DNA from: Paenisporosarcina cavernae
Lineage (GTDB): Bacteria > Bacillota > Bacilli > Bacillales_A > Planococcaceae
DNA: 64,000 nucleotides
Assembly (NCBI RefSeq): GCF_003595195.1
Contig: NZ_CP032418.1
Location: 880,501-944,500, forward strand
Direction: 5' to 3'
Shown here: piece by piece, positions 19,426-36,265 of the stretch
Layout of the letters: each line of letters starts with the position of its first letter
Position numbering within the stretch: the first letter of the stretch is position 1
Program-made: the position numbers and the translations under genes
The notes under the pieces: model-generated
The model's input: the letters and a program-made list of their open reading frames with translations, nothing else
Told to the model about the DNA's origin: nothing
Database searches by the model: none

Positions 19426-19677
19426 AGATTCGATAAGTTATGTACAATGACGGAGACAGTAAGTTCGTAGCGTTAGAGTAGCGATTTAGGGATAGTGAGA
19501 GCCTAAACAAAACATGCGAAACGAAAATCACTCCACGAGTAGAATTGCTGAACAGAAAGAAGTAAGCATTTCCGGTCACACACCGTTACATGTGTCTGAG
19601 TGGTAACAAATTGTTACAACTAGGGTGGTACCGCGAGTATAGTCAATCTCGTCCCTTTTTAGGGATGGGATTTTTTT
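19426..19677 (+). promoter_or_regulatory. Isoleucine T-box riboswitch
   Basis: A leader of about 250 nt before ileS. The invariant T-box AGGGTGGTACCGCG is at 19622-19635, which pairs with the acceptor end of uncharged tRNA through its bulge. The specifier region is at 19523-19538: GAAAATC-ACTCC-ACGAG. By comparison with other T-boxes, where the specifier codon is followed by ACC and GAG elements, it gives ATC (Ile) at 19527-19529. A terminator at 19647-19677 is replaced by the antiterminator when uncharged tRNA-Ile binds. The 5' boundary is estimated from the promoter. Confidence 0.95.
19647..19677 (+). terminator. T-box-controlled terminator before ileS
   Basis: TCTCGTCCC (19647-19655) pairs with GGGATGGGA (19662-19670), with two G-U pairs, followed by seven T. 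It is the off-state structure of the T-box. Confidence 0.9.
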
Positions 19678-23867: not shown

Positions 23868-24615
<748 letters not shown>

Positions 24616-24629
24616 TCAGGAGATGTTTT

Positions 24630-25919
24630 ATGAGTCAGTCAGCAGTCATTGATATTCAAGATAAACCTTCAACAGGAAAGATGATCACCTTAAGTTTGCA
24701 ACACATGTTTGCCATGTTTGGAGCAACCATTCTTGTTCCACAACTTGTTGGATTAAGTCCCGCTATTGCGCTATTAACTAGTGGTATCGCGACAATTATC
24801 TTCTTATTTGTCACAAAATTTCAAGTCCCAGCATATTTAGGATCATCTTTTGCTTTTATTGCGCCAATTACATATGCCACAGCGGAAGCAGGTCTTGGCG
24901 GCGCCATGATTGGGAGCTTGTTTGTAGCACTTATTTATTTCGTCGTAGCTCTCGTTATCCGCCTTACCGGCTATCAATGGATTATGAGATTGCTTCCTCC
25001 AATCGTTGTTGCACCCATTATTATCGTAATAGGTCTTGCTTTATCACCAGTTGCGATTGACATGGCTATGAATATTCAAGTAGATAATCAATCTGTCTAT
25101 AGTATGAAACACTTTTCCGCTGCACTTGTCACGTTAGCTGCAGCAGTCATTACGATGATGTTTGTTCGCGGAACTATTAGTTTGATGCCTGTATTAGTAG
25201 GAATCATTATCGGATACGTGTATTCGCTCCTTATTGGTATTGTCGATTTCACAACGGTAAAAGAAGCTTCCTTTTTTGCGATACCAGATTTTTATTTACC
25301 CATCCTAGATTATGATGTAGTAGTAACTGCGAATTTGTTACTGATCATGATGCCTATCGCGATTGTGACGATTTCTGAGCATATAGGACATCAGCTAGTG
25401 TTAGGAAAAGTAGTGGATCGTGATTTTATCAAGGAACCAGGATTGCATCGCTCTTTACTAGGTGACGGACTTGGAACGTTTGTCAGTGGGTTACTAGGCG
25501 GACCTCCTAAAACAACATACGGGGAGAACATTGGCGTGCTTGCCGTTACTCGCGTCTACAGTATATACGTTATTTTCGGCGCAGCAATTGCGGCAATCGG
25601 TACTTCCTTTTTAGGGAAATTGATGGCGTTAATTGCAACAATACCCGCGAATGTACTTGGCGGAATTTCGATCTTGTTATTTGGAATCATCGCATCATCC
25701 GGTCTTAGAATGTTAGTAGATGGAAATATTGACTTTGGTGACAAACGAAATTTAGTCATCTCATCGATTATTTTGGTCATTGGAATTGGTGGTGCGAAAA
25801 TACACTTCACTGATTATTTTGAACTGAGTGGAATGGCTCTAGCGGCTATCATTGGGGTCCTGCTCAATGCCGTTCTACCATATGAAAAAAAGAATACCTC
25901 TTCTGAACATTCCGTTTAA
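24630..25919 (+). CDS. pyrP: Uracil permease PyrP (NCS2 family)
   Basis: Proton-coupled uracil importer of 429 residues with about 12-14 membrane segments. Family features are LQHMFAMFGATILVPQLVGL near the N-terminus, the half-helix substrate region SSFAFIAPITYA (about 73-84), the ISEHIGHQLVLG motif (about 248) and GGPPKTTYGENIGVLAVT (about 289-306). It supplies uracil for PyrR and salvage enzymes. AGGAGATG precedes the start. No attenuator separates it from pyrR, unlike B. subtilis. The next PyrR hairpin overlaps its 3' end. Confidence 0.97.
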   Translation: MSQSAVIDIQDKPSTGKMITLSLQHMFAMFGATILVPQLVGLSPAIALLTSGIATIIFLFVTKFQVPAYLGSSFAFIAPITYATAEAGLGGAMIGSLFVALIYFVVALVIRLTGYQWIMRLLPPIVVAPIIIVIGLALSPVAIDMAMNIQVDNQSVYSMKHFSAALVTLAAAVITMMFVRGTISLMPVLVGIIIGYVYSLLIGIVDFTTVKEASFFAIPDFYLPILDYDVVVTANLLLIMMPIAIVTISEHIGHQLVLGKVVDRDFIKEPGLHRSLLGDGLGTFVSGLLGGPPKTTYGENIGVLAVTRVYSIYVIFGAAIAAIGTSFLGKLMALIATIPANVLGGISILLFGIIASSGLRMLVDGNIDFGDKRNLVISSIILVIGIGGAKIHFTDYFELSGMALAAIIGVLLNAVLPYEKKNTSSEHSV

Positions 25920-26029
25920 CATGTAGTCCCGTGAGGCTAATAAGGGAATGGGGATTAAATCTATGCACGTATAGGTTTATTTTCTGTTATCTTGTGATGC
26001 CTCTCCTAGTTACTGGAGAGGCATTTTTT
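25908..26029 (+). promoter_or_regulatory. PyrR-dependent attenuator between pyrP and pyrB
   Basis: The PyrR loop AGTCCCGTGAGGCT (25925-25938) lies in a hairpin closed by CATTCC (25908-25913, inside pyrP) and GGAATG (25945-25950). The terminator is ATGCCTCTCC (25997-26006) with GGAGAGGCAT (26015-26024) and a T run to 26029. It uncouples biosynthesis genes from pyrR-pyrP when UMP is high. Confidence 0.92.
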
Positions 26030-26044
26030 ATAGGAGGAGAAACG

Positions 26045-32487: not shown

Positions 32488-34872
<2,385 letters not shown>

Positions 34873-34873
34873 A

Positions 34874-35503
34874 ATGACGAAAGAAACAATTGCACGAGCA
34901 TTACTGGACGTACAAGCGGTAGAATTGCGTCCACAAGATCCGTTTACATGGGCATCAGGAATTAAATCACCTATTTACTGTGATAACCGATTAACCATGT
35001 CGTATCCTGCTACACGGAAAGAAATTGCTTCCGCTATGGCAGAAGTCATCTCTTCCTACTTTTCTGAAGTGGAAGTGCTTGCTGGAACAGCAACAGCGGG
35101 AATACCACATGCCGCTTGGGTAAGCGATAAAATGGAACTACCGATGGTATATGTGCGTTCGAGTGCAAAAAAACACGGACGTGGAAATCAAATTGAAGGC
35201 AGATTAGTCCCGGGGCAAAAAGCAGTGGTGATCGAAGATTTAATCTCCACAGGTGGATCTAGTATTGAGGCTGTACGAGCTTTACAAGAAGCGGGTTGTG
35301 AAGTACTAGGTGTGGTATCGATCTTTTCGTATGGACTTGATCGAGCAGAAGAAGCATTTCAAGAATTAGGGATTCCGTCCATCTCCTTAACGGATTTTGA
35401 GACACTCTCCAAAGAGGCGATTGTATCTGGGGCTATTTCTTCGGAAGATGCAGAACCATTAAAAGAGTGGCATACAAAACTCCGAAAAGGGGAGTTAGTA
35501 TAA
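34874..35503 (+). CDS. pyrE: Orotate phosphoribosyltransferase
   Basis: Transfers phosphoribose from PRPP to orotate, giving OMP. The 209 residues carry the type I PRTase PRPP loop [17 protein letters not shown] (about 116-132), the flexible loop region [15 protein letters not shown] and the hood segment [21 protein letters not shown] about 10 nt before ATG 34874 sets the start; it is 1 nt beyond the pyrF stop. It is the last gene of the operon, followed by a 378-bp non-coding gap. Confidence 0.97.
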
Positions 35504-35654
35504 TCGAGTGTGAGCGATCAATTCATTCCTGGGGGCTTCATTCACGAAGAATAGTTGATAGTAAACACATCTACTAGAATGATCTATCTCAGTGGAATAA
35601 AATATTAGTACGTACATCAAATGATTGTAAAAGTTAGATCGCTATAAGCGGTTA

Positions 35655-35699
35655 CGTCCGTTCTATCAGCGCGGGAGTTCAGACGGACGATTTTCCCGC
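35655..35699. other. Interleaved inverted repeats (pseudoknot-like topology)
   Basis: CGTCCGT (35655-35661) pairs with ACGGACG (35683-35689), and GCGGGA (35671-35676) pairs with TCCCGC (35694-35699). The order is A-B-A'-B', so as RNA the stems either form an H-type pseudoknot or exclude each other. A third segment, CCGTCT (35726-35731), could also pair with AGACGG (35681-35686). The transcribed strand is unknown. Confidence 0.45.
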
Positions 35700-35739
35700 T
35701 AATAAAAAAGAAGGCGTGACTCAAACCGTCTCAAAAATA

Positions 35740-35792
35740 AAAATCCGAACGAATTCGAGCTTCTTAAGCACTGTCGAATTTGTTCGGATTTT
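35740..35792. terminator. Bidirectional terminator between pyrE and the minus-strand genes
   Basis: AAAATCCGAAC-G-AATTCGA (35740-35758) and TCGAATT-T-GTTCGGATTTT (35774-35792) form a 19-bp stem with a single G-U position around a 15-nt loop. A/T runs flank both sides. The T-tract is longer in the minus-strand direction, so it mainly serves the VOC-rqcH transcript while also stopping pyr read-through. Confidence 0.85.
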
Positions 35793-35881
35793 ATGTTTTC
35801 AAAAGATCTATCTTCAATAATCGGAGGAATAATGTTGGTCTACATACTACGTGAACCTTTAGACTTCACAGATGTAGCTAC

Positions 35882-36265
35882 CTAATTAGTACAGATCATC
35901 AGAACATTTCCGTCGGGATCTTGGAAATTAAAATAGGCAAAATCTCCGAATCGTTCGATTTCTCGAACAATCTCGACACCTTTTGATGTTAAAAAGTCAT
36001 ATGCTTCATCGATATTTTCTGTATATAAGTTAAATAAAACGTGGTTTGCTGCTTGGAACCGAAACCCTGGATCAAACGTATGATCATCTAACGTCAACCC
36101 CGTAGTGCTTGTCACTGGAATGTTGTAGACCGGTGACTCCACTTTTCCCTCTGGCATCGGCAATCCGAGTAGTTCACTATACCATTTTACTGAATCATGT
36201 AAATTCGATACATGGATAAATACATTGTTTACCTTTGCTGCAATTGGAGAAGTGGTGAGTGCCAT
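35882..36265 (-). CDS. VOC (glyoxalase/dioxygenase) superfamily protein
   Basis: A 127-residue single-domain protein of the vicinal-oxygen-chelate fold. The first beta-alpha-beta module reads NNVFIHVSNLHDSVKWYSELLGL (in two pieces, about 13-35), and the second ends in FAYFNFQDPDGNVLMICT, with the usual D-P-D/E-G-N turn. Candidate metal ligands are the His near residue 18, the His in NHVLFNLY and a C-terminal Asp/Glu, but substrate and activity cannot be assigned. It lies 28 nt downstream of rqcH on the same strand, with AAAGGGG before its ATG, so the two are probably co-transcribed. Confidence 0.85.
   Translation of the reverse strand: MALTTSPIAAKVNNVFIHVSNLHDSVKWYSELLGLPMPEGKVESPVYNIPVTSTTGLTLDDHTFDPGFRFQAANHVLFNLYTENIDEAYDFLTSKGVEIVREIERFGDFAYFNFQDPDGNVLMICTN

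What the first reader, a model, noticed from the sequence alone, without database searches (positions are those of the whole stretch)
35655..35731. Interleaved inverted repeats in the non-coding gap after pyrE
The arms are ordered A-B-A'-B' (7-bp and 6-bp perfect stems), which as RNA gives a pseudoknot or two mutually exclusive hairpins. A third segment (35726-35731) can pair with part of A'. This switch-like layout sits between pyrE and the terminator and is explained by no annotated feature. It could be a structured 3' UTR, a small RNA, or a decayed element.
Basis: seen in the sequence. Interest (0 to 1): 0.5.

Follow-up and report, generated by a model that had tools for sequence, protein, structure and literature searches.

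The report
Gene-end 21-base repeat, not RNA switch
The odd inverted repeats after the pyrE gene overlap a short copy of a 21-base-pair repeat that this bacterium and several related genera carry mostly near the ends of genes, and nothing found here supports an RNA switch.

Summary
By stem strength this is the best A-B-A'-B' pair in the window, but look-elsewhere controls leave it compatible with chance. No RNA family, conserved relative or excess folding supports a pseudoknot or switch.

What is there is something else. The minus strand of 35671-35630 is two units of a dispersed repeat: an 11-base core CGCYNATAGAA plus about 10 variable bases, period 21 (sometimes 20). Unit 1 is the window's best match to a profile built without it (18.1 bits; next 9.8); a weaker unit 2 follows at exactly 21. 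The genome holds 52 two-unit matches against 2 for the reversed pattern. Of 261 family genomes, 22 (this one included) have five or more matches, up to 514.

Of 19 own arrays examined, 16 lie past a co-oriented gene and 10 between convergent genes, as here. Arm A lies almost wholly in unit 1's variable part; arm B abuts the unit.

Best reading: a short copy of a gene-end repeat. If it works at all, it probably does so as helically phased DNA, like REP/BIME elements. That is inferred, not shown. Seven literature searches found no description of it.

The parts
34874..35503 (+). pyrE (orotate phosphoribosyltransferase), last gene before the gap; the ORF as listed starts at 34844
   Evidence: ORF; Pfam Pribosyltran 1.6e-13; PyrE relatives in 8 of 9 genus genomes, this one included
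35651..35671 (-). repeat unit 1: core CGCTGATAGAA + spacer CGGACGTAAC. Arm A (35655-35661) is the last core base plus six spacer bases; arm B (35671-35676) shares only the unit's first base
   Evidence: top PWM score of the window, 18.1 bits against 9.8 for the next, profile built without it; 0-mismatch member of the 52 own-genome matches
35630..35650 (-). repeat unit 2: CGCTTATAG-type unit, like the last unit of several other arrays; weak on its own
   Evidence: PWM 7.8 bits at exactly 21 bases from unit 1; other arrays ending in CGCTTATAG
35697..35717 (+). possible degenerate unit in opposite orientation (CGCTAATAAAA...), overlapping arm B' by three bases; suggestive only
   Evidence: PWM 9.5 bits, listed fourth of about 128,000 positions in the window
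35733..35799 (.). terminator-like hairpin, T-rich on both sides, between the convergent genes
   Evidence: 26-nt arms 85% complementary; fold z -8.2; hairpin with T run also picked up; not listed by the simple scan
35882..36265 (-). glyoxalase/VOC-family gene, convergent with pyrE; the co-oriented upstream neighbour of the array
   Evidence: ORF; Pfam Glyoxalase 1.5e-14

Best explanation
The segment is a short (two-unit) copy of a dispersed, non-coding, non-palindromic repeat: an 11-base core CGCYNATAGAA followed by about 10 variable bases, repeated every 21 (sometimes 20) bases. In this genome most examined arrays lie just past the 3' ends of genes, and the repeat occurs in several genera of the family. 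Here it lies on the minus strand beyond the terminator of the VOC gene, between two convergent genes. SHOWN: membership in the repeat family, the 20-21-base period, the bias to gene ends. Arm A is mostly unit 1's spacer and arm B abuts unit 1; A' and B' may come from a degenerate inverted unit. INFERRED, weakly: if the element has a function it works as double-stranded DNA. Cores recur on the same face of the helix every two turns, which would suit cooperative binding of a protein at gene ends, for example to buffer supercoils between convergent transcripts or block read-through. I put identity as a copy of this repeat at about 0.9 and a selected DNA-level function for the family at about 0.35. 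The confidence below is for the identity and by-product reading, not for the function.
For: Own genome: 52 two-unit matches (39 +, 13 -) at up to 2 mismatches against 2 and 0 for the reversed-pattern control; 78 against 9 at up to 3. Family: 50 of 261 genomes match at up to 1 mismatch; counting from the table, 22 (own included) have five or more (6 of 19 genera) against 2 genomes with five or more control matches. In the window only 35671(-) reaches 18.1 bits; the next is 9.8. Distances between cores in own arrays are 20, 21, 41, 42, 61-63, 82-84, 103-104, with one outlier at 91; in the family loci 21, 42, 63, 84 and 105 dominate, 151 of 167 pairs. Placement: 16 of 19 own rows have a co-oriented gene on the left (binomial p 0.004) and 17 of 23 in the family sample (p 0.035); 10 of 19 own rows are in convergent gaps against 17 of 87 comparable gaps (Fisher p 0.007). 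Arrays do not fold better than shuffles as RNA (mean z +0.47 sense, -0.42 antisense, 13 arrays). The 20-base steps speak against a 7-codon reading.
Against: The search pattern was drawn up partly from the window itself, so its 0-mismatch status there is not independent; the profile leaves the window out, but its 29 units came from arrays found with that pattern. This copy has only two recognisable units, the second weak (7.8 bits; higher scores occur elsewhere in the window). The inverted-unit origin of A' and B' rests on one 9.5-bit match, with 3 extra bases between A' and the core. Units were picked by their cores, so core conservation is partly built in. Placement counts use mechanical ORF calls, treat rows in one gap as separate (two own rows share a gap; several family rows do), and cover 18 of the 23 own clusters. 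In the family sample 6 of 23 arrays do not follow a co-oriented gene and 1 row without a left neighbour was dropped; some arrays touch called ORFs. One array folds well antisense (z -2.96). 7 of 9 genus genomes have no match, so the repeat is patchy, as a neutral or selfish repeat would be. No protein partner, transcription or binding data exist.
Confidence: 0.8

Rival explanations
1. Pyrimidine-responsive or other RNA switch, pseudoknot or sRNA in the pyrE 3' UTR, formed by the A-B-A'-B' arms.
For: Strongest interleaved pair in the window, rarely matched in local shuffles; lies in the presumed pyrE transcript before the terminator; both stems G+C rich.
Against: Not exceptional after look-elsewhere correction; no Rfam match; nested folding not better than shuffles; stem A probability about 0.05; no similar 3' region in 7 genus relatives; exact letters in 1 of 261 family genomes; no downstream gene on that strand to control; the 4-base loop over a 7-bp stem is tight for a classic H-type pseudoknot (recalled).
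Confidence: 0.06
2. On function: neutral or selfish repeat. The arrays spread and decay by copying and recombination and do nothing; they collect between convergent gene ends because insertions there harm least. (Same identity as the best explanation, without a selected role.)
For: Patchy distribution among species; the 20-base units of nine arrays share a spacer (identity 0.58 against 0.33 for random sets of long units, 0 of 5000 as high), so these arrays look like copies of one ancestral element; G045 has near-uniform 42-base copies typical of tandem slippage.
Against: Spacers differ even within an array and between genera while the core recurs, which plain tandem duplication does not give, though units were picked by their cores; near-perfect 21-base phasing.
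Confidence: 0.45
3. Remnant of the G+C-rich dispersed element found right after pyrE in genus relative G004.
For: Local match CAGACGGACGATTTTCCCG to CAGGCGGACGCTTTCCACG; a copy sits after pyrE in G004.
Against: 108 of 1000 shuffles score as well; the own genome has one partial match to that element, elsewhere.
Confidence: 0.03
4. Remnant of a protein-coding gene.
For: Terminator later after pyrE than in the 7 genus relatives; period 21 is divisible by 3.
Against: Five of the 14 stop-to-stop frames of the gap were scanned: four without a Pfam match, one with a match far below its cut-off (E 0.12); 20-base steps break any frame.
Confidence: 0.02

Closest known systems
REP / BIME elements (repetitive extragenic palindromes, bacterial interspersed mosaic elements)
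   Same: Short, dispersed, extragenic, in arrays with regular spacing; known to bind several proteins, with suggested roles in chromosome organisation and transcription termination (abstract of PMC2817692); frequent near gene 3' ends (recalled).
   Different: REPs are palindromes and BIMEs alternate in orientation; here the unit is not a palindrome and the clear units of an array are head to tail with a 20-21-base period; no RAYT link tested.
CRISPR arrays
   Same: Conserved short repeat alternating with variable segments of regular length.
   Different: CRISPR repeats are 24-48 bp (passage of PMC3733652); here an 11-base core and about 10-base spacers, in 23 clusters over the genome.
MITEs and bcr1-type repeats of Bacillus
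   Same: Dispersed non-coding elements; bcr1 is named among bacterial MITEs in a passage of PMC3733652.
   Different: No terminal inverted repeats recognised; the element is defined by its internal period.
Iterons of plasmid origins
   Same: Direct repeats phased at about two helical turns with a conserved core (recalled, not from a call).
   Different: Chromosomal, dispersed, at gene ends; no initiator gene was looked for.
H-type pseudoknot riboswitches (preQ1, SAM-II and the like)
   Same: A-B-A'-B' arm order (recalled).
   Different: No Rfam match, no conservation found, 3' of the operon rather than 5' of a gene.

Membership tests
21-base gene-end repeat defined here | core CGCYNATAGAA-like, repeated at 20-21 bases | tested here: met
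   units at 35671 and 35650 minus, 18.1 and 7.8 bits, spacing 21
21-base gene-end repeat defined here | intergenic, downstream of a co-oriented gene | tested here: met
   VOC gene, then terminator-like hairpin, then array, 211 bases past the VOC gene, convergent with pyrE (L223)
REP/BIME | palindromic unit | tested here: not met
   core CGCTGATAGAA is not self-complementary (read directly); 13 arrays fold on average no better than shuffles
REP/BIME | associated RAYT (Y1 transposase) gene | not tested
CRISPR | repeats of 24-48 bp in one or a few loci | tested here: not met
   11-base core, 23 separate clusters in the genome
Known structured RNA (Rfam) | score at or above a family's gathering cut-off | tested here: not met
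   no match at the site or in the loci of four other arrays and the window's own
Conserved pseudoknot or switch | compensatory changes in the paired arms across relatives | not testable with these tools
   no homologous 3' region found in the genus or the family sample
MITE | terminal inverted repeats | tested here: inconclusive
   none noticed by eye in the arrays; ends were not mapped against empty sites

The most novel reading that the evidence does not exclude
The arrays are binding sites, phased at two helical turns, for an undescribed DNA-binding protein of this bacterial family. The protein would mark or insulate gene ends and shape the chromosome. In this genome the arrays are missing from about half of the chromosome, including the presumed replication terminus: none of 23 clusters lies inside 0.916-2.143 Mb of 2.537 Mb, two of them marking its edges.
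Probability: 0.2. Interest if true: 0.7.

Novelty: new variant of a known kind. Interest (0 to 1): 0.4.

Why it matters
It replaces a doubtful RNA switch with a concrete, testable repeat family that turns up in several genera, favours gene ends and keeps step with the DNA helix. If the cores bind a protein, this would be a Gram-positive counterpart of REP/BIME gene-end elements. If not, it is an example of how a tandem repeat next to a possible degenerate inverted unit can imitate a pseudoknot and mislead a reader of raw sequence.

Tried and rejected
RNA routes: Rfam at gathering and permissive thresholds (eleven hits up to E 10, none near its cut-off, the best being microRNA-type matches to the terminator hairpin), Rfam on array loci (nothing), single-strand folding. 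Covariation could not be done for lack of homologues.

Homology routes: DNA search in 9 genus and 121 family genomes (outside the own genome the best was E 0.0013, in two genomes; six first-look candidates per genome were scored). Downstream regions of 37 PyrE loci compared with the gap (best E 0.089); three of the seven genus loci were in the wrong orientation there, which I noticed afterwards, turned round and compared again, all seven, (best E 0.33). Phages and plasmids with the gap and plasmids with the G045 array: no match. PyrE in viral contigs: none. Exact arm pattern in 261 family genomes: own only. A pattern fitted to the G045 array found 4 tandem copies of that array only. None of the 80 named PyrE loci holds an array pair, so no named organism can be given for the repeat. 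No tRNA gene in the window.

Decayed G+C-rich element: not significant. Coding remnant: 5 of 14 frames scanned, nothing above a cut-off.

Literature: seven searches aimed at the repeat gave no description of it (44 and 47 searched the letters of two core variants and listed four papers whose titles are on other subjects; one listed ten papers whose titles are on other subjects). One search on pyrE 3' regions found nothing. Of the papers I saw the listing, of PMC2817692 the abstract and outline, of PMC3733652 ten passages. The library holds open-licence papers only.

The first script for the genome-wide null failed on masked bases after printing the window counts and was rerun with those positions treated as unpaired. 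The stem energies came from a makeshift evaluation; searches use nearest-neighbour stacks.

Full report
1. The observation. Between the pyrE stop (35503) and the convergent VOC gene (stop side 35882) lie 378 bases. Of the 14 stop-to-stop frames that overlap them, 5 were scanned and gave nothing above a Pfam cut-off. A strong hairpin at 35733-35799, T-rich on both sides, looks like a shared terminator. The simple scan did not list it, probably because of its long stem and loop.

2. Chance. The bare layout is common: 41 in the window, 39 of 300 shuffled gaps. By stem energy this pair is the best of 1630 in the window, and local shuffles reach it in 0, 0 and 1 of 500. Yet 11 of 40 shuffled windows hold one as good, and 397.5 kb of the same genome hold 6. 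Asking that both stems be strong, a test made up after seeing the finding, leaves 4 of 150 shuffled windows and 1 other place. So the pair is unusual locally but not beyond what a 64-kb reading can turn up.

3. RNA. No Rfam family fits. The nested ensemble favours stem B (about 0.6) and hardly uses A (0.05) or the third arm (0.003). Fold energies are ordinary. In the genus, pyrE was found in 8 of 9 genomes, this one included. In the 7 others the 1497 bases after pyrE show no significant similarity to 35504-35735 (best E 0.33), and each has a terminator-like hairpin within 250 bases of the stop, six of them within 92. The exact arm letters are found in this genome only, among 261.

4. The repeat. 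Weak hits to 35642-35672 inside the own genome and a tandem array in G045 led to the sequences. They share CGCYNATAGAA-like cores every 21 bases. A two-unit pattern has 52 matches in the own genome at up to 2 mismatches (control 2) and 78 at up to 3 (control 9). In 261 family genomes 50 match at up to 1 mismatch. Since the reversed pattern also hits a number of genomes once or twice, the safer count is the 22 genomes, own included, with five or more matches (control: 2 genomes), in 6 of 19 genera, with 514 in G045 and 413 in G215 (counted from its table). G007, of the same genus, has similar units after its own pyrE (read by eye; one unit), but in the other orientation relative to pyrE, so it is not the same array.

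5. The copy in the window. A profile was made from 29 hand-picked 21-base units of seven other arrays. Position 35671 on the minus strand scores 18.1 bits, far above the next of about 128,000 positions (9.8). A second unit follows at exactly 21 bases (7.8 bits, a score others in the window exceed), and a possible inverted unit starts at 35697 on the plus strand (9.5 bits, listed fourth). Arm A is the last core base and six spacer bases of unit 1. Arm B shares only the first base of unit 1 and otherwise lies in its flank. If the inverted unit is real, A' and B' are a matching spacer and core boundary on the other strand, and the A-B-A'-B' order follows from two opposed pieces of one tandem repeat. 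This last step is inference; the distance from A' to that core is 3 bases longer than in unit 1.

6. Anatomy of the family. The unrestricted distance table shows 20-21, 41-42, 61-63, 82-84, 103-104 and one 91; in the family loci 21, 42, 63, 84 and 105 make up 151 of 167 pairs. Of 13 arrays with four or more units, 11 have exactly one 20-base step, one has none and one has two. The short units share a spacer (identity 0.58; random sets of long units mean 0.33, maximum 0.50; 0 of 5000 as high). That test used nine arrays with one short unit each; four short units of three other arrays were left out. So these arrays look like copies of one composite element, not independent expansions. As RNA, 13 arrays fold on average no better than shuffles (mean z +0.47 sense, -0.42 antisense; one at -2.96 antisense).

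7. Placement. Loci were at hand for 18 of the 23 own clusters, giving 19 rows (two in one gap, one the window's own). In 16 rows the left neighbour is co-oriented; 10 rows are convergent, 6 co-directional in the repeat's own direction, 3 otherwise. Comparable gaps (180-700 bases) in 461.5 kb of this genome are convergent in 17 of 87; Fisher p 0.007. A crude detector found a hairpin with T run between the left gene and the array in 14 of 19 rows, 12 of them among the 16 co-oriented, the window's included. In the family sample of 24 rows, one without a left neighbour, 17 of 23 have a co-oriented left neighbour (p 0.035; several rows share a gap). ORF calls are mechanical, so these counts are approximate.

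8. Chromosome distribution. The 23 clusters at up to 2 mismatches leave 0.916-2.143 Mb empty (about 1e-6 if uniform, with the 21 clusters that do not form its edges; the interval was chosen after seeing it). GC skew changes sign between 1.14 and 1.24 Mb, so the terminus is presumably there. Gap supply differs (48 gaps of 180-700 bases in ten 20-kb samples outside, 29 in ten inside; convergent 11 and 4), which does not by itself explain an empty half. At 3 mismatches three weak matches appear inside, within the noise of the control.

9. Reading. The finding is a short copy of a gene-end repeat. If the repeat has a function, the mechanism most consistent with recurring cores, free spacers and a two-turn phase is protein binding to one face of the DNA at gene ends, as suggested for REP/BIME elements. 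A neutral or selfish repeat that survives best between convergent genes explains nearly as much, and I hold it slightly more likely than a selected function. The RNA switch is much less likely than either.

10. Membership. It is not a REP/BIME by the palindrome test, not a CRISPR by unit size and dispersal, and not a known RNA by Rfam. It works, at most, like a REP/BIME. The kind (dispersed intergenic repeat) is known; this sequence family was not found described in the seven searches named under Tried and rejected, which cover only the open-licence library.

Noticed in passing
G000:C1 0.916-2.143 Mb (own genome): None of the 23 clusters of the 21-base repeat at up to 2 mismatches lies inside this 1.23-Mb stretch, which includes the GC-skew switch near 1.2 Mb; the window's own copy is at its edge.
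   Followed up: partly
window 35733-35799; L009, L023, L026, L027: The terminator-like hairpin after pyrE resembles hairpins elsewhere in the genome (shared ATCCGAACGAATTCGA-like stem, 75-92% identity), as if terminator stems were themselves a repeat family.
   Followed up: no
L116 (G004) just after pyrE; other genus genomes: A different, G+C-rich dispersed element of the genus (GCGCTCCAGGCGGACGCTTTCC...), whose two ends sometimes lie about 500 bases apart: 4 to 49 matches in each of the 8 other genus genomes (up to 40 candidates scored each), one partial match in the window's genome.
   Followed up: partly
L154, G000:C1 near 2.029 Mb: Another repeat, GAGAATCGATCGCCTACCGCT, also with period 21, soon after a terminator-like hairpin (read by eye); possibly a diverged subfamily in the half of the chromosome that lacks the main repeat.
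   Followed up: no
L261, L262 (IMGVR_UViG_3300025087_000211): One viral contig carries a match to a three-unit pattern of the 21-base repeat; both loci come from this contig.
   Followed up: no
window 19438-19659; 23910-24046; 25909-26031: A T-box leader and two PyrR binding sites in the same window, the usual 5' control devices of such operons.
   Followed up: no
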